IMG/VR virus record: IMGVR_UViG_3300036846_000691
Span: 1 to 20,084 of that record
Strand: one strand, 5' to 3'
Length of the DNA stretch: 20,084 bases
Source of the DNA: a virus
The notes beneath the pieces were generated by a model. The model was not told the DNA's origin. It was given only the letters and a program-made list of their open reading frames with translations, and searched no databases. The stretch's first letter is position 1, and each line of letters starts with the position of its first letter. The translations under genes and the position numbers were made by a program. Shown piece after piece: positions 1-20,084 of the stretch.

Positions 1-10
1 CGTCGGCCTC

Positions 11-47
11 CAGCCGCCAGAGACCAAACCACAGGGTGGGGCGGCTG
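11..47 (+). promoter_or_regulatory. Hairpin in the capsid mRNA leader
   Basis: Positions 11-18 (CAGCCGCC) and 40-47 (GGCGGCTG) are perfect reverse complements separated by 21 bases. The hairpin sits in the only sizeable gap of the head operon, 129 bases between protease stop and capsid start across the circle junction. It may stabilise or separately process the capsid message, or help set its high expression; that role is inference. Confidence 0.4.
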
Positions 48-107
48 TAGACGGGGAAGGCGCTCGAGCGATAGGGCCCGCGTTAGGTCAATCGTTCGCG
101 CAACCCG

Positions 108-115
108 TAAGGAGG
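108..115 (+). promoter_or_regulatory. Strong ribosome binding site of the capsid gene
   Basis: TAAGGAGG lies 8 bases before the ATG at 124. It is one of the best Shine-Dalgarno matches in the window, where most genes rely on stop-start overlap instead, and fits the need for hundreds of capsid subunits. Confidence 0.85.
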
Positions 116-123
116 AACCCTCA

Positions 124-1317
124 ATGAGGGCAGCCGACCAGATGCTCAGCTCCTACATGACCGAGATCGAGGAGCGCAAGCAGTTCATCGACGGCCTCGT
201 CGAATCGGCCAACGGCAAGGACCTCTCCGACGAGCAGCTCGAGCTCGTCAGCCGCGCCAAGGACAGGATCGCGTCCCTGAACCGGCAGATGGAGCCGATC
301 GAGGAGGCACGCCGGATCAGCAGCGACTCGCAGGAACGGCTGGAGCGGATCTCGCAGGTGATGAACCAGAAGCCGCCGCAGGCGGTCGAGTACCGGTCCG
401 CCGGCGACTACGCGCTCGACCTGTGGCGCGGCGGCTTCGGCGACAGGGACGCCCGCTCCCGGCTCGAGATCTACAACCGGGCCGCGTCCCACCAGACGAC
501 CGCCGACAACCCCGGCCTGATCCCGACACCGATCCTCGGCCCGGTCGTCGACTTCATCGACTCGAACCGGCCGCTCGTGTCGGCGCTGGGGCCGCGGCAG
601 CTGCCCGGCCAGAACTGGGTCCGGCCGAAGGTGACCGTTCACACCAGCGTCGCGTTGCAGTCCGCTGAGAAAGCGGAGCTCGTCAGCCAGAAGATGACGA
701 TCGCGAAGCTGACGGCGACCGCCGCAACCTACGGCGGCTACGTCAACGTCTCCCGGCAGGACATCGACTTCACCCAGCCCGGCGTGATGGACGTCGTGAT
801 CACCGACCTCGCCGGCCAGTACGCGATCCAGACGGAGGCGGCCGCCGCGACAGCGTTCGCGGCTGCGGCAACAGCCGGCTCGACGCTGCCGACCGGCGCC
901 AACACCGCCGACCAGGTCTCCCAGGCGTTGTGGGCGGCCGCGGCGGCGCTCTACACCGCCACCAAAGGCGTCGGCACCGTCTTCGCGGTCATCCCGCCCG
1001 GCCTGCTCGCCCAGTGGGGGCCGATGTTCCCGCCCGTCAACCCGTTCAACCAGCAGTCGCCCGGCTTCAACGCCGGCAACTTCTCGAGCGGCCTGATGGG
1101 CCAGATCGCGTCGATCCCGATCTATGTGTCGCCGGCGATCGCCACGAACACCGGCCTCGTCTTGAGCTCCGCGGCCGCCGAGGTGTACGAGGACCGGATC
1201 GGGTCGTTGCAGGTCGTTGAGCCGTCCGTGCTCGGCGTCCAGGTCGCCTATGCAGGGTACTTCACACCGCTCGTGATCGAGCCGACCGGCATCATCAAGA
1301 TCACGAAGACGCCGTGA
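124..1317 (+). CDS. Major capsid protein, HK97 fold
   Basis: This 397-residue protein should form the icosahedral shell. The first 85 or so residues are charged and helical, with heptad-like spacing, matching the delta scaffold domain that HK97-type capsid proteins carry and the prohead protease removes. The body starts near residue 88 (EYRSAGDYALDLWRGG) and contains a conserved-looking core with VNVSRQDIDF around residue 205 and an alanine-rich helix near 240. Length is normal for the family. Start choice is firm because of the TAAGGAGG site 8 bases upstream. On the circle it follows portal and protease, and its stop overlaps the next start. I am confident of the role; the cleavage position cannot be read from sequence alone. 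Confidence 0.93.
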   Translation: MRAADQMLSSYMTEIEERKQFIDGLVESANGKDLSDEQLELVSRAKDRIASLNRQMEPIEEARRISSDSQERLERISQVMNQKPPQAVEYRSAGDYALDLWRGGFGDRDARSRLEIYNRAASHQTTADNPGLIPTPILGPVVDFIDSNRPLVSALGPRQLPGQNWVRPKVTVHTSVALQSAEKAELVSQKMTIAKLTATAATYGGYVNVSRQDIDFTQPGVMDVVITDLAGQYAIQTEAAAATAFAAAATAGSTLPTGANTADQVSQALWAAAAALYTATKGVGTVFAVIPPGLLAQWGPMFPPVNPFNQQSPGFNAGNFSSGLMGQIASIPIYVSPAIATNTGLVLSSAAAEVYEDRIGSLQVVEPSVLGVQVAYAGYFTPLVIEPTGIIKITKTP

Positions 1318-2357: not shown

Positions 2358-2828
2358 TTGGGAAAGTTCCTGCTCAAAAACGTCAAGGTGATGGTCGGAA
2401 CCACCGACCTCAGCACGCACGCGTTCGACGTCGACACACCGTCGGTGAAAGACCAGGTCGACGTGTCCGGGTTCTCGCCGACCGGCACCCGCGAGTACCT
2501 GCCGGGGATGGCCGACCAGACGATCACGGTGCAGTTCGAGAACGACTTCGCCGCCCTGTCGGTCCACGCCACCCTGCAGGCGATGTTCGCGGCCGGCACG
2601 ACCCAGGTCGTCTACGTGCAGCCGGACGCGACCGCGGCCGTCTCCGCAACGAACCCGGCCTACGGCGGCCAGGCGTGCCTGTTCGACTACAACGGCCTCT
2701 CCGGCGCCCTGAACGCACGGTCGGAGACGACGGCGACGTTCAAGCCGGCGCCGGGCAGCTCGTTCGTGTGGGGGCCGACGGTGCCGACCGTGGAGGAGGC
2801 CGACACCGCCGCGAAGACGGCCAAGTAA
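2358..2828 (+). CDS. Major tail tube protein
   Basis: The 156-residue protein starts at a TTG, chosen because AAGGAGG at 2344-2350 is placed 7 bases before it. It begins MGKFLLKNVKVMVGTTDLS and continues with alternating polar and hydrophobic strands, an all-beta pattern typical of siphovirus tail tube subunits. The tail region (residues 140-156) is acidic and alanine-rich. Tail tube proteins polymerise around the tape measure into the hollow tail. The strong ribosome binding site in an otherwise overlap-coupled operon fits a protein needed in many copies. Confidence is good because length, fold pattern, position and expression signal agree. Confidence 0.85.
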   Translation: MGKFLLKNVKVMVGTTDLSTHAFDVDTPSVKDQVDVSGFSPTGTREYLPGMADQTITVQFENDFAALSVHATLQAMFAAGTTQVVYVQPDATAAVSATNPAYGGQACLFDYNGLSGALNARSETTATFKPAPGSSFVWGPTVPTVEEADTAAKTAK

Positions 2829-3211
2829 TGCCGGTCATCGTCAAAGGGTTGCGGGACGTCAACGCGGCGTTCGCGCACACCGACCGTGAGATCCGGTTGG
2901 AGTGGCGGGCCGGCATGCGGCAGGTCGCCGAGCCAGTCCGCCGCGACGCCGAACTGTCGGCGCAGCAGTCGATCCCGAACATGGCGGCGTCGCCCCGCTG
3001 GGCCAGGATGCGGATCGGTGTCACCCGCAACATGGTCTATGTCGCGCCGCGGCAACGGGGCACACGGGGCCGCACAGCAGCCCACAGGCCCAACCTCGCC
3101 GGGCTGCTGATGGACCGCGCGATGCAGCCCGCTTTGGACCGGCACGAGCACGAGATCACCGGCCGGATCGAGCACCTGCTCGTCGAGGTCGCCGACGGTT
3201 TCAATGCCTGA
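2828..3211 (+). CDS. HK97 gp10-like tail component
   Basis: The ATG at 2828 overlaps the tail tube stop (TAATG), giving 127 residues. The open frame continues upstream, but the overlap start is preferred. The sequence has helical ends and a central basic segment with a short repeated aromatic and arginine pattern (YVAPRQRGTRGRTA near residues 72-85), like the gp10 family of phage neck and tail proteins. In most phages this gene precedes the tail tube; here it follows it. It may be the tail terminator or a tail-assembly partner. The family call is by size, pattern and neighbourhood. Confidence 0.6.
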   Translation: MPVIVKGLRDVNAAFAHTDREIRLEWRAGMRQVAEPVRRDAELSAQQSIPNMAASPRWARMRIGVTRNMVYVAPRQRGTRGRTAAHRPNLAGLLMDRAMQPALDRHEHEITGRIEHLLVEVADGFNA

Positions 3212-5469: not shown

Positions 5470-6840
5470 GTGTCGCCGACCGGCCCGACCGGCCGCTTCC
5501 ACCTCGCGTTCAACCAGAACTCGTTGACGTGGGCGCCGACCTGGACCAGGATCGACAGCTACGACAGCCTGGTCACGAGCTACACGATCGACCGGGGCCG
5601 CCAGTACGAGCTCGACCGCACCGACACCGGCCGCGCCGTCGTCCAGATCGCCGACCGCGAAGGCATCCTCGACCCGACCAACGCGGGCGGCCCGTTCTAC
5701 GGCCAGATCGAGCCGCTGCTGCAAGCGTTGATTTGCCGCCGCAACCCCGTCAGCGGCAGCTGGTACACCAGGTTCCGCGGCTTCGTCGAGGAGATGGACT
5801 ATTCGTTTGATCCGTCGCAGCAGGTCAACCGGCTGCAGCTTTCGCTGGTCGACATCTTCGAGTTCCTGTCGGCGATCGAGCTATTCACGACCACGAACGG
5901 CGACACACCACCAACGGACCTCGACGCGGCCGACCAGATCTACTACCCGGCTCAGCCGATGGACGTCCGCATCAACCAGGTCCTCGACGAGTCGATCGGC
6001 CCGACCGCGAAAGCCGACTACACCGTCGTCTTCAGCGGCAACGTCGACGTGAAGGAGCAGATCTACTCGCCCGGCGAGTCGGTGATGACCGCGATCCAGG
6101 AAGCGGCCGACGCCGAGTTCCCCGGCGTCTCGAACGTCTTCACCGACCGGCAGGGCCGCCTCGCCGTCCACGGCCGGCTCGCGAAGTTCGACCCGGCCGG
6201 TGTCCTCGCCGGCGCCGCCGCCGGGGCCTGGGACTGGCACAGCTTCAAAGCCGGTGACGGCGCCCAGGTCGCGTCCGACCCGGCCAACTACGCCCACATC
6301 CGCCGCTTCAGCTTCAACCGCGGCCTCGCGAAGATCATCAACCAGGCGTTCGCGACCCCTTTGCGCCGCAGCGGCCCGGCGATCACCGGCCCGGAGATGA
6401 CCGGCCAGATGGTCACCGACACCACCTCGATCGACACCTGGGGGATCCGGTCGTGGTCGGCGCAGGACCTGATCACCGCCGGCGGGCTGCTCGGCACACC
6501 AACAACCGACCTGCAGGAGACGAAGCTGTTCGCGACCTACTACGTCGAGAACTACGCCTACCCGCAGAACCGCGTCACCGAGATCGGTTTCCGGACGATG
6601 ACCCCGGCGATGGCGGGCGCGAGCGAGAACTGGCGGCTGCTGTCCTTGGTCGACATCAGCGATGAGGTGCTCGTCACGATCGAGTCGCCCGGCGGCGGTT
6701 TCTTCGCCGCCGAGCCGTACTTCGTCGAGGGCGTCCACGAGCAGGTCGGGCCCTTGGTGCCCGGCTACGACGACGTCACCCTCACGCTGGATCTGTCGCC
6801 GCAGGCGTTCTACACCACGAACCCGTTCCCGACGTCGTGA
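5470..6840 (+). CDS. Distal tail / tail-associated baseplate protein
   Basis: The product has 456 residues from a GTG at 5470, 17 bases after the tape measure stop; no in-frame ATG, GTG or TTG was found in the short gap. Residues 1-120 contain a pattern common in actinobacterial phage minor tail proteins: an immunoglobulin-like start, ELDRTDTGRAVVQIADREG and ILDPTNAGGPFYG, then FRGFVEEMDYSF. This resembles Dit-type tail hub proteins, and the later part (residues 150-440) resembles Tal-like hub domains, so one gene may do both jobs. It should cap the tail tip and hold the fibres encoded next. No peptidase or glycosidase motif is visible. Role is likely; the division into Dit and Tal parts is inference. 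Confidence 0.78.
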   Translation: MSPTGPTGRFHLAFNQNSLTWAPTWTRIDSYDSLVTSYTIDRGRQYELDRTDTGRAVVQIADREGILDPTNAGGPFYGQIEPLLQALICRRNPVSGSWYTRFRGFVEEMDYSFDPSQQVNRLQLSLVDIFEFLSAIELFTTTNGDTPPTDLDAADQIYYPAQPMDVRINQVLDESIGPTAKADYTVVFSGNVDVKEQIYSPGESVMTAIQEAADAEFPGVSNVFTDRQGRLAVHGRLAKFDPAGVLAGAAAGAWDWHSFKAGDGAQVASDPANYAHIRRFSFNRGLAKIINQAFATPLRRSGPAITGPEMTGQMVTDTTSIDTWGIRSWSAQDLITAGGLLGTPTTDLQETKLFATYYVENYAYPQNRVTEIGFRTMTPAMAGASENWRLLSLVDISDEVLVTIESPGGGFFAAEPYFVEGVHEQVGPLVPGYDDVTLTLDLSPQAFYTTNPFPTS

Positions 6841-7460
6841 AGCACCCGAAACCGATCATCCACGGCCGCGACCACGAGCACGGCGGCGCCGACCCGACCC
6901 ACATCGTCTACGAGGACGTCGGCACAAGCGGCGGCGGCGGCGGATCGGGCGGCGAGCCGTTCGGCGTCGGCCAGCGGAAATCGTTCACCGCCGCCGCGAA
7001 CACGACCACCCAGCTCGCCCCGTTCGACAACTTCGACGCGAGCGACGACACCGTCTACCAGAAGGACGCCACGACCGGCGCGATGAGGATCCTGAAAACC
7101 GGTCTCTACCGGGTCGAGGCGTGGCTCACCATGTACGCGCTGCCGGCGAACATCCCGCTCGCGACGGCGCCCTCCCTTTCGGTCAACACCGGCGGCATCG
7201 CGGCGCCGAACAGCGTCATCTCGCTGCCCGCCGGCCGCAACTCGTACGTCAACGGCCGCGCCACCGGCCCCGGCACCGGCCTCTGGGACCCCTACGCCGT
7301 CACCTACCTCAACGTCGGCGCCGCCCCCTACCTGATCTCGACGAGCCTGATCGGCAACGGCTCGACCGCGAACAGCTGGAACGTCGACTGGGCGATCCTG
7401 GCCGCAACCCGGCTCGCCGACTACACGGCCGCGCTCGACCTCTCACCGTTCGGGACATGA
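6837..7460 (+). CDS. Minor tail protein with C1q-like domain
   Basis: A GTG start overlaps the previous stop as GTGA, giving 207 residues. The N-terminus carries HGRDHEHGGADPTHIVYED, a histidine-rich motif I recognise from tail-tip proteins of actinobacterial phages, followed by a glycine linker (residues 31-40). Residues 50-205 are beta-rich, with a sequence such as GAMRILKTGLYRVEAWLTM that fits the C1q/TNF-like jelly roll often used for receptor binding or as a trimeric fibre base. It sits between the tail hub and the collagen-like fibres, so it probably belongs to the adhesion device. The C1q assignment is pattern-based. Confidence 0.7.
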   Translation: MKHPKPIIHGRDHEHGGADPTHIVYEDVGTSGGGGGSGGEPFGVGQRKSFTAAANTTTQLAPFDNFDASDDTVYQKDATTGAMRILKTGLYRVEAWLTMYALPANIPLATAPSLSVNTGGIAAPNSVISLPAGRNSYVNGRATGPGTGLWDPYAVTYLNVGAAPYLISTSLIGNGSTANSWNVDWAILAATRLADYTAALDLSPFGT

Positions 7461-8383
7461 CCAGCAAGTTCTCGAAGATCCAGTGGGGCGACGGGCTGAC
7501 CGTCACCGACGAGGGCGCCGGCGTCATCCGCGTCGACGGCGGCGGTGGCGCCGGGCCGGCAGGGCCGGCCGGCCCCGCGGGCCCAACCGGTGCGACCGGT
7601 CCCGGCGTCCCGGCCGGCGGCACGACCGGCCAGGTGCTCGAGAAAAACAGCGGCACCGACTACGACACGGTTTGGGCGACCGCGACGGGCGGCGGCACGA
7701 TCAGCTGGGAGGACGTCGGCGGCACCGGCACCGTCGCGATCCCGACCTCGATCGTCGACGCGAAGGGCGACCTGATCGCCGCGTCCGCGAACGACGCCGT
7801 CGCCCGCCTCCCGGTCGGCAGCAACGGGCAGGTCCTGACGGCCGACTCCACGCAGACATTAGGCGTCAAATGGGCGACAGGCTCCGGCGGCGGCGGCATC
7901 AGCCAGAGCTACGTTGGCTACAACACCGCCGGCGGGACTACCGACGCGATCGCGAACGCAGCCTACAAACAGGTTTACAAGCGGGTGACGCTCGCGGCCG
8001 CGGGGCTGCTCACCTCGATCGACAGCTATCTGCTCGGGAACGCCAGCAACGTCCACAACCTGTCCGTCGCCGTTTTCGACGACAACGGCGGCGTCCCCGG
8101 AAAGCTGATCGCGATCAACGCCGGCGGAGAAACAACGGGCGGAACGACGATCGTCAACGTCGCCCTGAATACCACCGCCCGCTGGCTGAGCGTTCCTGTC
8201 GGTGTCTGGCTGCCCGCCGGCACCTACTGGCTGATGATCAGCGGCGGCAACAACCTGACCTTGCACTACGACGGCAGCGGCAGCGACTACACCGCATCGA
8301 ACGCCGTCACCTGGATCAACGAGAACACGGCCCCATCCAGCAGCAGCCGTAAATACTCGATCCGCGGCTCGCTGGTGTCGTAG
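7457..8383 (+). CDS. Collagen-like tail fibre A
   Basis: The ATG at 7457 overlaps the preceding stop (ATGA), giving 308 residues; the frame is open far upstream but that part is antiparallel noise. Three parts are visible: an N-terminal attachment module (residues 4-27, SKIQWGDGLTVTDEGAGVIR), a short Gly-X-Y collagen-like rod (about 31-50, GPAGPAGPAGPTGATG), then beta-rich repeats including a segment typical of phage fibres (DAKGDLIAASANDAVARLP) and a distinct C-terminal head (about 150-308). Collagen-like rods in phage fibres form trimers. The attachment module is shared with the next gene. It likely binds the cell surface; the receptor is unknown. Confidence 0.82.
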   Translation: MTSKFSKIQWGDGLTVTDEGAGVIRVDGGGGAGPAGPAGPAGPTGATGPGVPAGGTTGQVLEKNSGTDYDTVWATATGGGTISWEDVGGTGTVAIPTSIVDAKGDLIAASANDAVARLPVGSNGQVLTADSTQTLGVKWATGSGGGGISQSYVGYNTAGGTTDAIANAAYKQVYKRVTLAAAGLLTSIDSYLLGNASNVHNLSVAVFDDNGGVPGKLIAINAGGETTGGTTIVNVALNTTARWLSVPVGVWLPAGTYWLMISGGNNLTLHYDGSGSDYTASNAVTWINENTAPSSSSRKYSIRGSLVS

Positions 8384-8385
8384 CG

Positions 8386-9180
8386 ATGGTGATGCAGCCG
8401 TTCAGCGAGATCCAGTTCGGCGACGGCCTCGCCGTCACCGACCTCGGCAGCGGCCTGATCCGCGTCGACGGCTCTGCCGGGCCCGCCGGGCCGACCGGCC
8501 CGGCAGGCGCAACAGGCGCGACAGGCCCGGCGGGTGCGACCGGCGCGACGGGCCCGGCGGGGGCGCCTGCCTACCCGACCCCGGTCGTCAACGGTCAGTG
8601 GATCAAAGGCGTCGGCGGTGCGGCCGCCTGGGCGCCGATCGCCCAGGCCGACCTGCCGCTGATCCCCTACGGAACGTCGCTGCCGGCGTCGCCATTCGAC
8701 GGGCAGGAGGCGATCCTCGTCAACACGGTCACCAATCCGGCTTACCAATGGCGGTTCCGCTACAACGCTGGCTCAAGCTCGGCGTACAAGTGGGAGTTCG
8801 TCGGCGGGAGTCCTGCGTTGACGGCGCAGGGTGCGGCACACTCGAATATCAACACAGGCGGGTCGTGGGTCAATCTCGCCAACATGGCGGCCTGGACGGT
8901 GCCGCGGGCGGGGGAGTACTACTACTTTTTGAGCGCACTTGGCCAGACGTTCAATGGGGTGCAGGGAAACCTTCAAGTCGGGATCAACGGTTCCGCGGTG
9001 CTCACCTGGGCAGCGCCGTCGGGCACGCCAACGTTTTTCGGGACGCAGTCGATGAATCAGACCGCGGTGGCCGCTACGGCATCGCAGGTCTGGACGCCTC
9101 AGGTGCTTTCCACGGCCGCAGGCGCGAACTGGTCGGCAAGCGGCTGCGTCCTGGCGGTGGTCCCGATCAGGGTCTCATAG
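8386..9180 (+). CDS. Collagen-like tail fibre B
   Basis: The 264-residue product starts two bases after fibre A ends. Residues 7-28 (SEIQFGDGLAVTDLGSGLIR) closely match the N-terminal module of fibre A, and residues 32-60 form a longer, cleaner Gly-X-Y rod of about nine triplets with GPAGATGATG repeats. The rest differs: a segment with PVVNGQWIKGVGGAAAW and a strand-rich C-terminal head (about 145-264) with no close similarity to that of fibre A. The DNA of the C-terminal half (8760-9170) looks less strictly GC-biased at third positions than its neighbours, which may reflect acquisition of a new head. Probable second adhesin on the same tail tip. Confidence 0.82.
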   Translation: MVMQPFSEIQFGDGLAVTDLGSGLIRVDGSAGPAGPTGPAGATGATGPAGATGATGPAGAPAYPTPVVNGQWIKGVGGAAAWAPIAQADLPLIPYGTSLPASPFDGQEAILVNTVTNPAYQWRFRYNAGSSSAYKWEFVGGSPALTAQGAAHSNINTGGSWVNLANMAAWTVPRAGEYYYFLSALGQTFNGVQGNLQVGINGSAVLTWAAPSGTPTFFGTQSMNQTAVAATASQVWTPQVLSTAAGANWSASGCVLAVVPIRVS

Positions 9181-10886: not shown

Positions 10887-11200
10887 ACAATGCCGTTTTG
10901 GTCGCCGCCGCCGCGGTCGCCGTTGTGGCGCTGCTGCTGCTCACGCTCGAGCTCGCCGCGGCGATGGGGAGACGGCGCCGCCGCCGCGAACGGGCGCTCC
11001 GGCTGCGGCGGCAGGCGCAGCAGGAGGAGCGGCTCGGCCGCCTCCTGGTCCGCCGTGAGCTCGACGACCTCCGGCGCCGTGACATGGCCGCTGTAGACTT
11101 CCCGGACACGTTAAAGAGCCCGGCGCCGCCGAAACGGCCCGGGCACGGCACAGGAGGTACGAGCTCCCATGCAACATCGATCCTACGGGGTCGCCCGTGA
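10883..11200 (+). CDS. One-TM basic membrane protein
   Basis: The ATG at 10883 gives 105 residues. Residues 4-28 form a clear membrane helix (VLVAAAAVAVVALLLLTLEL), followed by an arginine-rich cytoplasmic segment with heptad character (RRRRRRERALRLRRQAQQEE to about residue 70) and a proline/serine tail. It overlaps both neighbours by GTGA/ATGA, so it is probably co-translated with the integrase. The tail may be non-structural, since a strong ribosome binding site lies inside it. Membrane proteins beside integrases are sometimes superinfection-exclusion factors, but no family is recognised here. Confidence 0.55.
   Translation: MNNAVLVAAAAVAVVALLLLTLELAAAMGRRRRRRERALRLRRQAQQEERLGRLLVRRELDDLRRRDMAAVDFPDTLKSPAPPKRPGHGTGGTSSHATSILRGRP
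11152..11157 (+). promoter_or_regulatory. Strong ribosome binding site ahead of the integrase start region
   Basis: AGGAGG at 11152-11157 is 11 bases before an ATG (11169) that opens a 26-codon frame ending at 11249, overlapping the integrase start in another frame. The site is too far (39 bases) from the integrase GTG at 11197. It may serve a short leader peptide that couples translation into the integrase, or indicate that integrase starts are not as assigned. Confidence 0.4.
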
Positions 11201-12129
11201 GGCGCGCACCCGTCTACGACGCCCCCGGGCTGGGGTTTCTCTTGCGTGACCTACGCCACATGCAGGCGGAGGCCGCCCAGGATCTCGAGGACTGGCTGAT
11301 CTTCCTCGACCTCGAAGGCAAAGCGGGCCGCACCCTCTACGCCTACCACCGCGAGCTCGCCCGGCTGCTTCGCGCCTACCCGGAGCACGAGATCGGCGAC
11401 TTCACCGCGACCGACGTCAACGCTCTGCTCCAGCAGGTGCCGCGACGTTCCCGCCACATCAGCCGTTCGATCTACAACAAGTTCTTCGAGTGGGCGCTGC
11501 TCGTCGGCCGGATTACGATCACGCCGATGTCGCAGGTGGCGAAGATCAAGCATCCGCCCCGGCACACCCGCGAGATCTTCACGCTCGCCGAGGTCGCCCA
11601 GCTCGAGTCGCTCCGCTCACCCGACGGCAACCTGTTCGCGGTCCTCTTCGGGTCCGGCCTCCGCCGCGGCGAGGCCCGCCGGCTGCGGCTCGAGCACGTC
11701 GACCTTGGCCGGCGCCGCCTCTCGGTCATCGGCGGCAAGGGCGGCAAGGACCGCGTCGTCGCGCTGACCCCGTCCGCGTTGCAGGCGGTCGCCGACCTCA
11801 CGATCACCGAAGGGCTGAACCCGGAGGACCACCTATGGGGATCGAGGCCGGGCGGCGGCAACGTCGTCGTGCGCCGCTGGCCGATCGGCAACACCACCTT
11901 CGAGACGTGGTATCGCCGCTGCATCGAGACGGCGGGCGTCCCGTACCTCAGCCCGCACACCACGAGGCACACCTACCACGAGCTGATGCGGCTCGCCGGC
12001 CTCGACCTCGAGGAGCGGCAGCTGATGATGGGTCACGCGTCGATCAGGACGACCGCCGACATCTACGGCCACCTCGACTTCGACGCCGTCGCGGACAAGC
12101 TCACCGATTTCAGAATAGAAAACGTCTAA
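11197..12129 (+). CDS. int: Tyrosine recombinase, phage integrase
   Basis: The 310-residue protein has the two-domain layout of tyrosine integrases: an N-terminal SAM-like core-binding domain (about 25-110, LEDWLIFLDLEGKAGRTLYAYHR is its first helix region) and a catalytic domain (about 125-300). All catalytic residues are visible: R156 in SGLRRGE, K184 in the beta-hairpin GGKGGKDR, H254 and R257 in HTTRH, H280 in MMGHAS and the nucleophile Y290 in DIYGH. It should integrate the circular phage DNA at a host site by strand exchange. There is no long N-terminal arm-binding domain. The GTG at 11197 overlaps the previous stop; a TTG at 11242 is an alternative. Marks the phage as temperate. Confidence 0.92.
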   Translation: MRRAPVYDAPGLGFLLRDLRHMQAEAAQDLEDWLIFLDLEGKAGRTLYAYHRELARLLRAYPEHEIGDFTATDVNALLQQVPRRSRHISRSIYNKFFEWALLVGRITITPMSQVAKIKHPPRHTREIFTLAEVAQLESLRSPDGNLFAVLFGSGLRRGEARRLRLEHVDLGRRRLSVIGGKGGKDRVVALTPSALQAVADLTITEGLNPEDHLWGSRPGGGNVVVRRWPIGNTTFETWYRRCIETAGVPYLSPHTTRHTYHELMRLAGLDLEERQLMMGHASIRTTADIYGHLDFDAVADKLTDFRIENV

Positions 12130-13317: not shown

Positions 13318-13923
13318 CTACTTAGGGTAGACGCTGCCGAGCGGCAGCTGATCGGTCTGCGGCATTGGTCGTGGCGTCGGCTCGGGCCGCACGCGTGGGA
13401 TGACCCGATCCATCTCAAAGAGACGCGCCGCCGCGGGCTGGCCGCGCCGAACCCGATAGGCGAGTTCGATCGCCGCACGCTTCGCGGTCGTCGTGATGCC
13501 CTTGCGCCGATTGTCGGTTTGGCAGAGCGGCCGCGTATTGACGCCCCAGACCGGAGCTGCATCACGATCGATGACATCGACGGTCAGGTCCTGGATGCCG
13601 TTCGGCATCTCAGCGAAGGCCTGGCCACAGCCCGGGCAGTTGCCGGCATAGGCGTGTTCGAGTTCGCCCGCTATGCGGACGAGCTCCCAGCCGTAGTCGT
13701 GCTCGAGCGTCGGGACCGAGATGCCGAGTCGGCGGGCATGGCTTCGCCGAGTCGTGCGCGCCTTCACGACCCAGCGGTTCGCGAGCTTCCGAGCGTCGCG
13801 CGTCTCCTGCTGGCAAGGGATACAGGGCTCCGCCCCGGAGATATATCTCCGGGGCGTGAAGGCGTCTGCCGGCAGCCAGTAGCCGCAGCTGGGGCAGAGA
13901 CAGGAGAGCTTGGGCGCAGCCAT
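13318..13923 (-). CDS. HNH-like zinc-binding nuclease, possibly degenerate
   Basis: This leftward 201-residue gene starts at ATG 13923. Zinc knuckles are clear: CLCPSCG (about 8-14) with CIPC near 34-37, and CPGCGQ near 95-100 with LCQTDN near 132-138. The core DLTVDVIDRDAAPVWGVNTR followed by CQTDNRRKG resembles HNH or endonuclease VII families, but the position where a DH pair is expected reads DV and the usual CN reads TDN. So either it is a variant active site or an inactive copy. It interrupts a run of rightward overlapping genes, as mobile HNH genes do. A long rightward open frame covers the same DNA but lacks protein-like features. Confidence 0.72.
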   Translation of the reverse strand: MAAPKLSCLCPSCGYWLPADAFTPRRYISGAEPCIPCQQETRDARKLANRWVVKARTTRRSHARRLGISVPTLEHDYGWELVRIAGELEHAYAGNCPGCGQAFAEMPNGIQDLTVDVIDRDAAPVWGVNTRPLCQTDNRRKGITTTAKRAAIELAYRVRRGQPAAARLFEMDRVIPRVRPEPTPRPMPQTDQLPLGSVYPK

Positions 13924-13973: not shown

Positions 13974-14177
13974 GTGAAGGTCGGTGATCGTGTGATGACG
14001 CCGCTCGGGTTCACCGGCACGATCACCGGCTTCTTCGAGACCACCTACCACGGTGCCCACATCAGGTTCGACCGGCCGCAGATCGCGAACCCCGACCACT
14101 ACTGCCCCGAAACCGGCCCCTACCCGCTCAGCCTGCTGACCCCGATCCCCGAGGAGAACACCGATGACAAGCCCTGA
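13974..14177 (+). CDS. Small SH3-like protein of unknown function
   Basis: A GTG at 13974 gives 67 residues, 50 bases from the divergent HNH-like gene start. The sequence MKVGDRVMTPLGFTGTITGF followed by AHIRFDRPQ is a typical small beta-barrel pattern (KOW/SH3-like, often seen in short phage and bacterial proteins of unknown role). Its 3' end overlaps the RecT-like gene by 14 bases, so the two are probably co-translated. It could be an accessory of the recombination or replication gene set, but no function is proven for this type. Confidence 0.68.
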   Translation: MKVGDRVMTPLGFTGTITGFFETTYHGAHIRFDRPQIANPDHYCPETGPYPLSLLTPIPEENTDDKP

Positions 14178-14865
14178 AACCCCACCGCCGGACAACCTTC
14201 CTGTCCTCTACGCCGCCGACCTGGAACGGTTTAGAACGGTCGGCTGGTGGCTGTCGCTGGCCGAATCCGGCGAAAAGAGCGCGCGCGCGCAGGGCGCCGC
14301 CGCCGCGCTGCGGCTCTATTACGCCGACTCGCTCGAGCTCCCACCATTGGCCGCCGCCGAGCTCTCGGTCATCAACGGCCGCCTATTCGTCGGCGCGAAA
14401 CTGCTGCGGGCGTTAGCGGCGCAACGCGGCTACCGCGTCACCAAAATCGAATCGACCGCGGAAACATGCACTGCCGCGCTCGTCGAAGTCGAGACAGGCG
14501 AGGAGGTCGGCCGCTCCACGTTCACGATCGACGACGCCAAGAGGGCCGGGCTGATCAAAGACCGCTCCGCCTGGAACAGCCACCCGGCCCGGATGCTGTG
14601 GGCGCGCGCATCGAAGTACGTTCTCGACGACTACGCACCAGCGATCACCCTTGGGATCTACACCGATGACGAGCGCGCCGAGATCCTCGAGCAGCCGGCG
14701 CCGCTGCCCAACGACGAGACCTGGGCTGACTTCACCCCTGAGGTCGTATCGACCTTGGACGTCGAGTACGACGACGAGCAGGAGACGTTGAAGGAGCTGC
14801 TCGAGATGGAAGGCGACGAGGAGGCTGCGACGCCGGGGGAACCAGAACCGAAACCGGCGAAGTGA
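14164..14865 (+). CDS. RecT-like single-strand annealing protein
   Basis: The 233-residue protein has a core (about 58-165) that fits phage RecT-family proteins of actinobacteria: LSVINGRLFVGAKLLRALA followed by RGYRVTKIESTAETC, then FTIDDAKRAGLIKDRSAWN and PARMLWARASKYVLDDYAP with LGIYTDDE. The C-terminus (190-233) is strongly acidic, a common tail for DNA-binding proteins that contact single-strand binding protein or control self-association. It should bind single-stranded DNA and anneal complementary strands in recombination-dependent replication. No RecE- or Cas4-like exonuclease is visible beside it. The ATG overlaps the gene before it and the stop overlaps a 27-residue frame after it. 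Confidence 0.75.
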   Translation: MTSPETPPPDNLPVLYAADLERFRTVGWWLSLAESGEKSARAQGAAAALRLYYADSLELPPLAAAELSVINGRLFVGAKLLRALAAQRGYRVTKIESTAETCTAALVEVETGEEVGRSTFTIDDAKRAGLIKDRSAWNSHPARMLWARASKYVLDDYAPAITLGIYTDDERAEILEQPAPLPNDETWADFTPEVVSTLDVEYDDEQETLKELLEMEGDEEAATPGEPEPKPAK

Positions 14866-16263: not shown

Positions 16264-16347
16264 AATGGGGGGCCCGTTTTTTGGTGTGGCCCCCGGGATG
16301 ACCCCCGTCCCTCGCCAGATTCTCTCTCTCTCGCGAGAGTCCGGCTG
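16264..16347. other. Leader of the terminase gene, candidate packaging site
   Basis: This 84-base gap contains GGGGGCC (16268-16274) paired with GGCCCCC (16288-16294) around a T-rich loop, further G and C runs, a CT repeat (about 16321-16332) and a 12-nt palindrome CTCTCGCGAGAG (16328-16339). Cos sites of HNH-type phages often lie just upstream of the terminase genes, and this is the only non-coding stretch in that position. A T-rich-loop hairpin could instead be a regulatory RNA element. Confidence 0.4.
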
Positions 16348-18099
16348 ATGCCGGCGCAGGCCCGGCTATCGTCGACGATGCGCGGCTACGGCCGCCGGCA
16401 TCAGGCGATCCGGGAGGAGCTCGAGCCGCTGGTGCTCGCCGGCGGTGTTTCGTGTGCACGTTGCGGCGAGCCGATCACGGACAACAACTGGCATCTCGGC
16501 CACACCGACGACCGGACCGGCTACACCGGGCCGGAGCATGCGCGCTGCAACATCCTGGCGGCCGGCGAGAAGGCGGCGCGGATGCGGTGGTCGCCACCAC
16601 CGCCGCCGGAGCCCGAGCCGGAACGAGAAGGTCTCGCTGCCGATCATCCGTGCTGGCGGGTGTCGTGGCTCGACGGGCTGCTCGAGCCGCCGCCGGACGC
16701 TGTCTGGCCGCGTTATATGACGGCGCCGCACCCGGCCGCGACAGGGTCGCTGGGGCCGGAGTTCATCGAGTGGGCGGAGGCTCGAGAGGAGAGGCCTTTG
16801 CGGTGGTGGCAGCGGCTCGTCGCGACCAGGCTGCTCGAGGTCGACGGGGAAGAGCTCGTCTGGGGGACGATGCTGTTGACGATGGCCAGGCAGCTCGGTA
16901 AGTCGTGGCTGCTCCGCGAGCTGCTTTTGTGGCGGATGCATCAGCGTCAGCGGTTCGGGGAGCCGCAGGACGTGATGCACATCGGCAAGGATCTGCAGGT
17001 CTGCAAGGAGATTCTGCGGCCGGCGTTGTTCTGGGCCGACGAGCGGCCCGGCTACAAGACAGGCCGGGCGGCCGGCGAGATGTACATCGAGCTGCTTGAG
17101 GATCATTCGCGCTGGATGCTGCGCGCGAAAGGGTCGATCAACGGCTACTCGGCGAACGTCGCGGCTGTCGACGAGGCCTGGAAGGTGCCGACCGACACCG
17201 TTACCGAGCTGACACCGATCCTGACGGCGAGAAACCAGCCGCAGCTGTGGCTGATCTCGACGGCGCACCGTGACGCGACCGCGTTAATGCTGGCGCGGCG
17301 GAAGGCGGCGATCGAGCATCTCGAGACCGACACGAGCACGTTGCTCGTCGAATGGTCGACGCCAAAGACGGCGGACATCGGCGACGTCTCGGGCTGGCGG
17401 CTCGCGTCGCCGCACTGGACCAGGCAGCGGGAACGGCTGATCCGGGAGGAGCTCGACGCCGTGCTCGCCGGCACCGCCGAGGTGTACGAGGGCGAGCCTG
17501 ACCCGCAGCAGGGATTCCAGGCGCAGTGGCTGAATCGGTGGCCCGACAGGACGATGTCGCTCGGGGCCGGCGAGCCGCTGCTGCCGCCCGGCCTGTGGGC
17601 GTATCTCGCGGAGCCCGGTCTGCGAGGCAGCGGCCCGCTGCACGTGACGGTCGAGGATGATTTCGGCAAGGGCGCCGCCGTCGCGGCGGCGGCCATGCTC
17701 GACGACGGCCGCCTCGAGGTCGACGGCTGGCTCTGCCCCGACTGGGACAAGGCCATGCTCGAGGTGTTACGCCTGGCTGCGTTACGCGAGATCCGGGAGC
17801 TGCTCGTCGGCGCGTCGCTGCTGGCCAGGGTGCCGCAGGAGATGACACCGGAGCCGCAGCCGGCGGGGAGCGCTGAGACCCGGCTCGGGCTGCCGCTGCT
17901 GCGTGACCTCGCAACGAACGGGATGGTCGCCCACGCCGACGACACCGACGACCTCGACCTGGCCGTCACGCAGGCGCAGGTGAAACAGCTCACGAGCGGG
18001 TTGCAGCTGCAGTCGGGCCACGCGACTCATCTCGTCAAGGCGATGCTCTGGGCCGTCTACGCCGCGCATGCGCCGGAGCCGGTGCCGGTGATCTTCTGA
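16348..18099 (+). CDS. terL: HNH nuclease fused to terminase large subunit
   Basis: One 583-residue open frame joins two proteins usually encoded apart. Residues 11-80 are an HNH domain of the packaging type: RGYGRRHQAIREEL, zinc cysteines C36/C39 (SCARCGEP), H52 in HLGHTDD, and GPEHARCN ending at 68. A proline-rich linker (82-92) leads to a terminase: Walker A-like ARQLGKSW (180-187), Walker B VAAVDEA (271-277, D275/E276), coupling motif LISTA (302-306), and a nuclease domain with acidic residues E436/D437/D438 and a DDTDDLD cluster near 531-537. TerL packages DNA into the prohead through the portal encoded next (overlapping stop-start region). HNH proteins next to terminases are known to be needed for cos cleavage; a covalent fusion is unusual. 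No separate small terminase gene is visible. Confidence 0.92.
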   Translation: MPAQARLSSTMRGYGRRHQAIREELEPLVLAGGVSCARCGEPITDNNWHLGHTDDRTGYTGPEHARCNILAAGEKAARMRWSPPPPPEPEPEREGLAADHPCWRVSWLDGLLEPPPDAVWPRYMTAPHPAATGSLGPEFIEWAEAREERPLRWWQRLVATRLLEVDGEELVWGTMLLTMARQLGKSWLLRELLLWRMHQRQRFGEPQDVMHIGKDLQVCKEILRPALFWADERPGYKTGRAAGEMYIELLEDHSRWMLRAKGSINGYSANVAAVDEAWKVPTDTVTELTPILTARNQPQLWLISTAHRDATALMLARRKAAIEHLETDTSTLLVEWSTPKTADIGDVSGWRLASPHWTRQRERLIREELDAVLAGTAEVYEGEPDPQQGFQAQWLNRWPDRTMSLGAGEPLLPPGLWAYLAEPGLRGSGPLHVTVEDDFGKGAAVAAAAMLDDGRLEVDGWLCPDWDKAMLEVLRLAALREIRELLVGASLLARVPQEMTPEPQPAGSAETRLGLPLLRDLATNGMVAHADDTDDLDLAVTQAQVKQLTSGLQLQSGHATHLVKAMLWAVYAAHAPEPVPVIF

Positions 18100-19343
18100 T
18101 GGCGTTCTGGACGCGAGGCATCAGGCCGCAGGACCCGGAGATCCCGAACACGAACCCGCCCGGTGTGCCGCCGGCGAGCGTCGGCCCGCCGGACGCGGTC
18201 CCGGGTGACCCGTCCGGTGTCGTCATCACCGGCCCCGCCGACCCTGGGGCGGCGCCGCCGCCCCGGATCATCCCGTCGGCCTGGTCCGGGTGGCCGTCGG
18301 ACTGGGCGACGCCGCTGTGGAGCTCGCAGAGCCTGCAGATGCTGACCGACACCGCCTGGATGTGCGTCGACCGGAACGCGTCGGTGCTGTCGGCGATGGC
18401 GCCGTATCTCGTCGACGCCGCACCGACCCTGTCGGCGGACTGGCTCAACAACCCTGACCCGGACGTCTATACGAGCTGGGACGAGTTCTGCAAGTCGGTG
18501 TTCTGGGATTACCAGGCGGCCGGTGAGGTGTTCGTTCTCGCGACCAGCCACTACTCGACCGGCTGGCCGGCGCGTTTCCACGTGGTGGCGCCCTGGTACG
18601 TCGAGATCGACATCCGCAACGGGATCCGCAGCTACGAGATCGGCGGCGACGACGTCACCGAGGACATGCTGCATATCCGCTACCAGTCGACGGTCGGGTA
18701 CGCGCACGGGATCGGCCCGTTGGCGGCCGGCAACATGCGGATGATCGCCGACCAGGTGCTGACCCAGTACGGGACGAAGCTCGCGACGACCGGCGTTCCG
18801 ACCGGCATCCTGACCTATCCCGGCAACATCAACGCTGAGCAGTCCGCACTCCTGCAGGCACAATGGGTGGCCGCCCGCCAGTCGACGATCGGCGAGCCGG
18901 CCGTGCTCGGTGGCGGCCTCACCTGGACGCCGACGCAGCTGAACCCGTCCGAGATGGCGCTGCTCGACCTGCTCCGGTTCAACCAGGCCCGGATCGCGGA
19001 GCTGCTGGGGATCCCGCCGGTGCTGGTCGGTTTGCCGACCGGCGGCGACCCGATGACCTACCGCAACGTCGCGATGCTGTACGACCAGCACTGGCGGTCC
19101 GGTTTGCAGCCGAAAGCCAAGTATGTGATGGCCGCCCTCTCGAACTGGCTGCTGCCCAGGGGGACGACGGTCGAGCTGAACAGCGACGCCTACGTCTCCG
19201 GCGACGTGCTGGAGCGGGCGCAGGCCTACCAGATCCTCGCCGGCATCGTCGACCCGGTCACCGGCCAGCAGGCGTTGACGGTCGGCGAGATCCGGGAGGC
19301 GGAACGATTGGGCAGATCGACACCGGGGGTGTTAGCGGGATGA
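18099..19343 (+). CDS. Portal protein
   Basis: The 414-residue protein starts at the base after, and shared with, the terminase stop (TGATG). Residues 10-65 are a proline-rich low-complexity leader; the rest fits the HK97-type portal family: WMCVDRNASVLSAMAPYLVD near residue 90, WDYQAAGEVFVLATSH near 140, LHIRYQSTVGYAHGIGPL near 190, and the typical LLRFNQARIAELLGIPPVLV near 295 followed by YRNVAMLYDQHW. Twelve copies normally form the ring at one capsid vertex through which DNA enters and leaves. Length is average for the family. The stop overlaps the protease start (ATGA). Confidence 0.93.
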   Translation: MAFWTRGIRPQDPEIPNTNPPGVPPASVGPPDAVPGDPSGVVITGPADPGAAPPPRIIPSAWSGWPSDWATPLWSSQSLQMLTDTAWMCVDRNASVLSAMAPYLVDAAPTLSADWLNNPDPDVYTSWDEFCKSVFWDYQAAGEVFVLATSHYSTGWPARFHVVAPWYVEIDIRNGIRSYEIGGDDVTEDMLHIRYQSTVGYAHGIGPLAAGNMRMIADQVLTQYGTKLATTGVPTGILTYPGNINAEQSALLQAQWVAARQSTIGEPAVLGGGLTWTPTQLNPSEMALLDLLRFNQARIAELLGIPPVLVGLPTGGDPMTYRNVAMLYDQHWRSGLQPKAKYVMAALSNWLLPRGTTVELNSDAYVSGDVLERAQAYQILAGIVDPVTGQQALTVGEIREAERLGRSTPGVLAG

Positions 19344-19951
19344 CCGAGGAGCTCGAGTACCGGGCCGCGACCGTCGCGGACGTCAACTTTCCGAAACGAA
19401 CGATCGAGCTGATCGTGATGCCGTACGAGTCGCCGACGCAGGTCGGCCACCGCGGCCGCATGATCACCGAGGTCGTCAGCCGCGGCGCCTACGACGGTGT
19501 TGAACGGCGCACGAGCCGGATCCGGGTCAACCGCGACCACGACCTCCGCCGCGTCGTCGGCAGGGCGTCAGCGTTGCACCCGTCCCGCCAGGAGGGCCTT
19601 GTGGCGGAGCTCCGGATCGCGAACACACCGCTCGGCGACGAGACGCTCGCGCTCGCCGAAGAAGAGATCCTGGACGCGTCCGCCGGCTTCGCGCTGCTCC
19701 ACGACGAGACCACCGGCAAGATCAAGGACGGCGCCGAGGTGTGGGAGACCCAGACGCGGCGGCGTCTCAACCATTTGTGGCTCGACCATATCGCGATGAC
19801 ACCGGACCCGGCCTACGAGGACGCCCGCGTGTTGTCGGTCCGCAACGCCGAGCACACAGCCGCGGAAGGGACACCGAACCTCGACAGCCTCAAGCTGGCC
19901 GAGCTCGAAGAGTTGTACGCGTCGATCGACAGGCGCTATGGTTTGCGGTAG
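19340..19951 (+). CDS. Prohead protease, S78 / HK97 gp4 type
   Basis: The ATG at 19340 overlaps the portal stop, giving 204 residues; the frame is open further upstream inside the portal gene but that part is not protein-like. Catalytic features of this serine protease family are visible: H67 in VNRDHD, S114 in ASAGFAL, and LDHIAMTPDPAYEDARV near 149-164. It should cleave the delta domain off capsid subunits and then itself during prohead maturation. The C-terminal 30 residues are an acidic helix likely used to bind the scaffold. Across the circle junction the capsid gene follows after a 129-base leader. Confidence 0.92.
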   Translation: MTEELEYRAATVADVNFPKRTIELIVMPYESPTQVGHRGRMITEVVSRGAYDGVERRTSRIRVNRDHDLRRVVGRASALHPSRQEGLVAELRIANTPLGDETLALAEEEILDASAGFALLHDETTGKIKDGAEVWETQTRRRLNHLWLDHIAMTPDPAYEDARVLSVRNAEHTAAEGTPNLDSLKLAELEELYASIDRRYGLR

Positions 19952-19957
19952 CTAGAT

Positions 19958-20084
19958 CGTCGGCCTCCAGCCGCCAGAGACCAAACCACAGGGTGGGGCG
20001 GCTGTAGACGGGGAAGGCGCTCGAGCGATAGGGCCCGCGTTAGGTCAATCGTTCGCGCAACCCGTAAGGAGGAACCCTCAATGA
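19958..20084. repeat. 127-bp terminal direct repeat, right copy
   Basis: Exact copy of 1-127, ending with the capsid start codon. It begins six bases after the stop codon of the prohead protease. Joining the copies gives the usual portal-protease-capsid order of HK97-like phages, which supports true circularity of the assembly. Physical ends could still be cos or headful ends elsewhere. Confidence 0.95.

What the first reader, a model, noticed from the sequence alone, without database searches (positions are those of the whole stretch)
16348..18099. HNH nuclease and terminase large subunit in one protein
A full packaging-type HNH domain (residues 11-80) is joined by a proline-rich linker to an intact TerL with Walker A, Walker B, coupling motif and nuclease residues. 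HNH proteins encoded beside terminases are an established part of the packaging machine in cos phages (HK97 gp74 type). A covalent fusion would fix one HNH per motor subunit and could replace a separate small terminase. I do not know of a described example, but cannot search.
Basis: partly seen in the sequence, partly recalled or inferred. Interest (0 to 1): 0.85.

Follow-up and report, generated by a model that had tools for sequence, protein, structure and literature searches.

The report
HNH nuclease fused to phage terminase
In a large group of uncultured soil phages, the protein motor that packs DNA into the virus head has an extra DNA-cutting domain built into it, and the phage DNA ends lie directly in front of its gene, which suggests that one protein does a job other phages split among two or three.

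Summary
The ORF at 16348-18099 (583 aa) is an HNH domain (phrog_1808, E 7e-14) joined to an HK97-like TerL (phrog_9; best solved-structure match HK97 TerL 6z6d). It is not an assembly join: 100 distinct proteins with this architecture were found, 97 in IMG/VR contigs (counting the window) and 3 in bacterial contigs (two Nocardioides isolates, one Acidimicrobiia MAG). The window is a complete circular assembly of 19,957 bp. New points: (1) Contigs of relatives end repeatedly, to the base, tens of bases upstream of the fusion gene; in one phage both contig ends match a third contig perfectly except for 11 missing bases, the mark of a lost 3' cohesive overhang. The site resembles TGAC-N11-GTCA of cultured phages Shoya and Brujita; predicted at 16299-16317 in the window. 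(2) Those phages carry the homologous HNH as a separate last gene, with TerS first; here HNH occupies TerS's place and no TerS is recognisable. (3) The HNH module has been swapped several times. Best reading: a single-chain cos terminase. No held paper describes it, but two UniProt entries look like unremarked fusions. HNH cutting at cos and replacement of TerS are inferred, not shown.

The parts
16348..18099 (+). HNH-TerL fusion gene, 583 aa; predicted to be the first gene downstream of the packaging site
16378..16587 (+). HNH domain, residues 11-80 (C36-x2-C39, LGH52, PEH64-x2-C67-N68)
   Evidence: phrog_1808 E 7e-14; 50-59% identical to stand-alone HNH genes at the right ends of Arthrobacter and Mycobacterium phages
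16588..16626 (+). proline/glutamate-rich linker, about residues 81-93, low model confidence
16627..17607 (+). TerL ATPase domain: Walker A RQLGKS 181-186, Walker B DE 275-276, coupling STAH 304-307
17635..18072 (+). TerL RNase-H-like nuclease domain: E436, D437, D537
16299..16317 (+). predicted cos: TGAC (16299-16302), 11-nt overhang CCCCGTCCCTC (16303-16313), then GCCA; predicted left genome end at 16314, 34 nt before the ATG
   Evidence: homology to physical contig ends of G004 against spanning contig L019 and to deposited ends of Shoya and Brujita; predicted, not observed, in the window itself
16277..16289 (+). conserved T-run element TTTTTTGGTGTGG upstream of the predicted cos, present in most relatives; role unknown (terminator or cos recognition)
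16320..16332 (+). pyrimidine tract downstream of the predicted cut (CTCTCTCT or TTTCCCCCC in relatives)
18099..19343 (+). portal protein, next gene
   Evidence: Pfam Phage_portal E 5e-41
19292..19951 (+). head maturation protease
   Evidence: Pfam Peptidase_S78 E 5.5e-11
124..1317 (+). HK97-fold major capsid protein; follows the protease across the circular join
   Evidence: phrog_2263 E 1e-64, Pfam PF25209; end overlap of 127 bp

Best explanation
The gene encodes a single-chain cos terminase: an HK97-type large terminase (ATPase motor plus RNase-H nuclease) carrying a packaging-type HNH nuclease as its N-terminal domain on a flexible proline-rich tether. It most likely acts on a cos site directly upstream of its own gene (window 16299-16317), where concatemers are cut with a stagger of 11 nt to leave 3' overhangs, after which the same chain packs the DNA. 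The HNH domain supplies or stimulates part of the cos cutting, as gp74 does for HK97 TerL, and because it occupies the position of the small terminase gene it probably also takes over some of the site recognition. Shown here: the fusion, its conservation, intact motifs of both nucleases, physical ends at that position in relatives, and no recognisable TerS. Inferred: which active site makes which nick, and replacement of TerS.
For: HNH and TerL in one frame; 100 distinct fused proteins at 34-68% identity to the window protein, including two bacterial isolates; HNH metal and catalytic motifs kept in the intact type A, B and C sequences and ATPase motifs invariant; best fold match HK97 TerL 6z6d, E 7e-21. 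Packaging site: 26 of 56 type A/B contigs end just before the pyrimidine tract upstream of the gene (counted by eye), some at identical bases in different metagenomes (L017/L018, L169/L170) or at the homologous base in phages 12-18% diverged (L054/L062/L055); G004's right end TGAC and left end ATCAG map without mismatch to L019 with exactly CCCCGTTCCTC (11 nt) missing; G009 and G023 also end TGAC on the right and start GTC on the left. Cultured Shoya and Brujita have TGAC-N11-GTCA ends, a stand-alone phrog_1808 HNH as last gene, then TerS and TerL. No TerS PHROG in the window, in the tested genes of G004 or of G023, while TerS PHROGs match 4 of 4 cultured relatives. Literature: HK97 makes 3' overhangs, gp74 promotes cos cleavage, and TerL packages without TerS in vitro (PMC9410871).
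Against: No biochemistry. The predicted cos in the window is by homology only; the 11-nt gap is measured in one phage, other spanning contigs suggest about 9 and 15 nt (L028/L029, L173/L174), and several relatives have right ends that do not fit the pattern (G012, G021, G024). TerS proteins are very diverse, so absence of a profile match does not prove absence; several small window genes (for example 1572-1922 and 2825-3211) have no profile match at all. HNH types vary much more than TerL, which could mean relaxed function. The deepest relatives (L073-L079, L081) show no HNH on the sequence held.
Confidence: 0.7

Rival explanations
1. The HNH helps TerL cut cos exactly as a stand-alone gp74-type protein does, merely tethered; a divergent small terminase encoded elsewhere still recognises cos.
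For: TerS is diverse and easily missed; small uncharacterised genes exist in these genomes; HK97 is described with TerS, TerL and HNH together (PMC9410871), and staphylococcal cos phages likewise (own knowledge).
Against: The same profile search recognises TerS in 4 of 4 cultured actinophages but in none of three fusion genomes; TerS normally precedes TerL, and here nothing lies between the predicted cos and the fusion gene.
Confidence: 0.35
2. The HNH domain is chiefly a zinc-based DNA-binding domain that places the motor at cos; the TerL nuclease makes both nicks.
For: HNH sequence types are exchanged while position is kept, as expected of a specificity module; it sits in the place of TerS.
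Against: Nuclease-type motifs (GH or DH, and CN in most) are kept in all types; gp74 stimulates cutting in HK97 (PMC9410871).
Confidence: 0.2
3. The HNH is a selfish or homing-type nuclease that happened to insert in frame into a terminase gene and has no packaging role.
For: Free-standing HNH homing endonucleases are common in phages (own knowledge); module exchange was seen on the tree.
Against: Always at the N-terminus of the same TerL in 100 distinct proteins; the closest stand-alone relatives sit beside cos in cultured phages.
Confidence: 0.04
4. Assembly or annotation artefact that joins two separate genes.
For: In L139 (Nocardioides alcanivorans) a similar HNH and TerL are two overlapping frames, so a frameshift error could create or break a fusion in single cases.
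Against: About 100 distinct fused sequences, including two isolate genomes, with a conserved linker region.
Confidence: 0.01

Closest known systems
HK97 terminase (TerL with separate TerS) and HNH protein gp74
   Same: HK97 TerL is the best solved-structure match; cos ends with 3' overhangs; an HNH protein promotes cos cutting (PMC9410871)
   Different: Three separate proteins in HK97; one chain here and no recognisable TerS
Arthrobacter phages Shoya and Eileen, Mycobacterium phage Brujita
   Same: Homologous phrog_1808 HNH, 50-59% identical over the domain; TGAC-N11-GTCA ends in Shoya and Brujita (TGAC-N9 in Eileen); TerL followed by portal
   Different: HNH is the last gene at the right end, cos follows, then TerS and TerL as separate genes; here the order is cos, then HNH-TerL
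UniProt A0A6J5RK67 and A0A6J5QUV0, 'HNHc domain containing protein', uncultured Caudovirales phage
   Same: About 600 aa; structural alignment spans the whole fusion, so probably HNH-TerL fusions
   Different: 17-24% identity; no paper found that remarks on the architecture
PHROG 4581, 'terminase small subunit'
   Same: Packaging HNH sequences match part of this family (Brujita HNH, E 0.0018; L137 HNH, E 0.0016), so HNH-like domains may also occur with TerS
   Different: Weak matches; different partner subunit
Protease-scaffold-capsid fusions of small-genome actinophages (Microbacterium cluster EE, Arthrobacter AN, Rhodococcus RRH1)
   Same: Small siphovirus genomes with assembly genes fused (PMC7302621)
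   Different: Different proteins fused; here protease and capsid are separate genes

Membership tests
Terminase large subunit, HK97-like (phrog_9) | Walker A, Walker B and coupling motif of the packaging ATPase | tested here: met
   RQxGKS, DE275-276 and STAH 304-307 essentially invariant in 57 sequences
Terminase large subunit, HK97-like (phrog_9) | C-terminal RNase-H-like nuclease domain with acidic residues | tested here: met
   Fold match to HK97 TerL over 510 columns; E436, D437, D537 in at least 52 of 57; metal geometry not examined
Terminase large subunit, HK97-like (phrog_9) | Adjacent to portal, protease and capsid genes | tested here: met
Packaging-type HNH protein (phrog_1808, gp74-like) | HNH zinc and catalytic motif | tested here: met
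   phrog_1808 E 7e-14; motifs in the intact relatives
Packaging-type HNH protein (phrog_1808, gp74-like) | Encoded as a separate gene near cos and terminase | tested here: not met
   Fused to TerL; near cos, but not separate
Packaging-type HNH protein (phrog_1808, gp74-like) | Promotes cos cleavage with TerL | not testable with these tools
   needs biochemistry
cos packaging with 3' overhangs | Defined genome ends at one site | tested here: met
   In relatives: identical or homologous contig ends across metagenomes; in the window by homology only
cos packaging with 3' overhangs | 3' single-stranded overhang | tested here: inconclusive
   11 nt missing between the two contig ends of G004, as expected when 3' overhangs are removed in library preparation; Shoya and Brujita show the same N11; not directly sequenced
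Two-subunit terminase | Separate TerS gene | tested here: not met
   No TerS profile match in the window, G004 or G023, with positive control; sensitivity limited

The most novel reading that the evidence does not exclude
A one-protein cos terminase: the fused HNH domain has replaced the small terminase, so that one polypeptide recognises cos, makes the staggered cut and drives packaging, with the HNH domain as an exchangeable specificity module.
Probability: 0.4. Interest if true: 0.8.

Novelty: new variant of a known kind. Interest (0 to 1): 0.62.

Why it matters
How HNH proteins work with the packaging motor, in what number, and whether they cut cos themselves or only help TerL, is unsettled even in HK97 (PMC9410871 leaves open whether the extra TerL elements serve HNH binding). 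A natural fusion that keeps HNH on the motor in about 100 distinct phage proteins, with the packaging site directly before the gene and no visible TerS, gives a simple system for testing this: one protein, one short DNA site, two separately mutable nuclease sites. It also gives a natural case for asking whether a small terminase is dispensable for cos-specific packaging.

Tried and rejected
Assembly chimera: rejected by about 100 distinct fusions and isolate genomes. Rarity: rejected for uncultured phages, though no INPHARED record covers 80% of the query, and in the listed rows of HNH-domain searches none of the annotated features under the match is a terminase. First genome-contig scan with a two-sequence alignment found nothing; the 57-sequence alignment found four. 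Sequence search of PDB gave only chance hits; the fold search gave HK97 TerL. HNH alone without an alignment folded poorly (pLDDT 49) and was not used. Plasmid search empty. Pattern scan for more right-end contigs found only the three known records. Right ends of five further genomes were uninformative or not at the site. Column 'H52 invariant' in alignment A2 is partly an alignment effect: in types B and C the likely catalytic His is in DHxPP, so the motif is reported and not the column. Kala et al. 2014 (HNH proteins in packaging machines) is not held and could not be checked for mention of a fusion.

Full report
THE OBSERVATION. The frame 16348-18099 is uninterrupted and encodes 583 aa. PHROG profiles place an HNH endonuclease (phrog_1808) on residues 5-80 and a large terminase (phrog_9) on residues 121-418. 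Pfam by itself is nearly silent, so this protein is easily missed by standard annotation. An AlphaFold model built with 57 sequences has mean pLDDT 88; the HNH domain at residues 16-80, a low-confidence linker, and the ATPase and nuclease domains are separate units. The best match among solved structures is HK97 TerL, 6z6d, E 7e-21.

IT IS NOT A JOIN. The window's first and last 127 bases are identical, which makes it a complete circular assembly with a unit of 19,957 bp. A first scan of viral contigs found an independent fusion at 55% identity. Profile scans found 86 and then 207 relatives in IMG/VR (the best 80 were kept each time) and four in bacterial genomes. After removing duplicates, 100 distinct proteins carry a fused HNH (99 by pattern, plus L071 by eye), 13 contigs are cut too close to tell, and one has the two as separate frames. 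Two fusions are in isolate genomes, Nocardioides sp. J54 (L138, 609 aa, followed by portal and protease) and N. nematodiphilus (L137); a third is in an Acidimicrobiia MAG (L136). In N. alcanivorans (L139) an HNH like that of L137 is a separate frame overlapping TerL, a plausible unfused state. Hosts are therefore probably Actinomycetota.

THE HNH MODULE IS EXCHANGED. Three sequence types occur on the same TerL: A (window; C-x2-C, LGH, PEH-x2-CN), B (C-x2-C, DHxPP, C-x2-CN; matched by phrog_589 in L001) and C (deeper branch). On a tree of the TerL part alone, types cluster but A and B change places at least three times on supported branches (a quick tree with several weak forks). Position, linker region and nuclease motifs are kept throughout.

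THE PACKAGING SITE. Many contigs stop just upstream of the fusion gene. By eye, 26 of 56 type A/B contigs begin 10-22 nt before a pyrimidine tract that precedes the gene. A stricter automatic count puts 19 of 56 contig starts in one fixed 46-nt stretch, against about 1.4 expected. L017 and L018, and L169 and L170, from different metagenomes, start at the same base; L054, L062 and L055 start at the homologous base although 12-18% diverged. G004 (24,004 bp) has both ends: right ...GGTGATGAC, left ATCAGATTT.... Contig L019 matches 200 bases on both sides without a mismatch and has exactly CCCCGTTCCTC between them. Loss of 11 bases between two ends is what end repair does to 3' overhangs. G009 and G023 also end in TGAC and begin with GTC. 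Deposited ends of cultured Shoya and Brujita read TGAC-TCCGCCCGGTA-GTCA and TGAC-CCCACCCCTCA-GTCA, and Eileen TGAC-CGCCGGAGA. The window has TGAC-CCCCGTCCCTC-GCCA at 16299-16317, with the left end predicted 34 nt before the start codon. Exceptions: L028/L029 implies 9 nt, L173/L174 about 15 nt, and G012, G021 and G024 have right ends that do not fit, so overhang length probably varies or some ends are ordinary contig breaks.

GENE ORDER. In Shoya, Eileen and Brujita the homologous HNH (phrog_1808) is the last gene, cos follows, then TerS and TerL. In the fusion phages the order is cos, HNH-TerL, portal: HNH sits where TerS was. No gene of the window, and none of the tested genes of G004 or G023, matches a TerS profile, whereas TerS profiles match all four cultured control proteins. 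This supports, but does not prove, loss of TerS.

MECHANISM. HK97 gp74 promotes cos cutting by TerL, HK97 ends are 3' overhangs, and HK97 TerL packages linear DNA without TerS in vitro, with TerS contributing to stalling at cos (PMC9410871). The fusion would keep the HNH on the motor through initiation, translocation and the terminal cut. Shown here: architecture, conservation, defined ends in relatives, lack of a recognisable TerS. Inferred: the division of labour between the two nuclease sites, and recognition of cos by the HNH domain.

NOVELTY. No paper found in the held library describes an HNH-TerL fusion; the key 2014 paper on packaging HNH proteins could not be read. Among 50,697 phage records no record covers 80% of the query, and HNH relatives there are stand-alone in the rows listed. 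The BFVD fold search finds two UniProt entries of 586 and 602 aa named 'HNHc domain containing protein', aligned over the full length at 17-24% identity, so the architecture is in databases but apparently unremarked. It is a new variant of a known kind: parts and packaging mode are known; the covalent arrangement, the changed gene order and the apparent lack of TerS are new as far as these tools show.

Noticed in passing
window 1-127 and 19958-20084: Identical 127-bp ends: complete circular assembly, unit 19,957 bp, a small siphovirus-like temperate genome.
   Followed up: yes
window 13318-13923 (-): Second HNH-superfamily gene: endonuclease VII-like (phrog_1035, E 8e-7), on the minus strand.
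   Followed up: no
window 14164-14865 and 11197-12129: RecT-like annealing protein and tyrosine integrase: a temperate phage with its own recombination gene; integrase conserved in many relatives.
   Followed up: no
window 16277-16289 and relatives: Conserved T6-7-GGTG element shortly before the right genome end in most relatives; a clear terminator hairpin precedes it in L003 but not in G004, so it may be part of cos.
   Followed up: partly
L139 7453-7950 and 7551-9440: In Nocardioides alcanivorans the HNH is a separate frame overlapping TerL, while N. nematodiphilus (L137) has a similar HNH fused: fused and unfused states in one genus.
   Followed up: partly
L073-L079, L081: Deepest TerL relatives begin at contig ends within tens of bases of a possible TerL start with no HNH; no separate HNH was found on G027 or G028, whose right ends may be missing.
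   Followed up: partly
PHROG 4581: A family named terminase small subunit weakly matches packaging HNH domains (Brujita, L137), hinting at TerS-HNH fusions elsewhere.
   Followed up: no
window 6662-8383 (3' part) and 8386-9180: Collagen-like GPAGPTG repeats in putative tail fibre genes.
   Followed up: no
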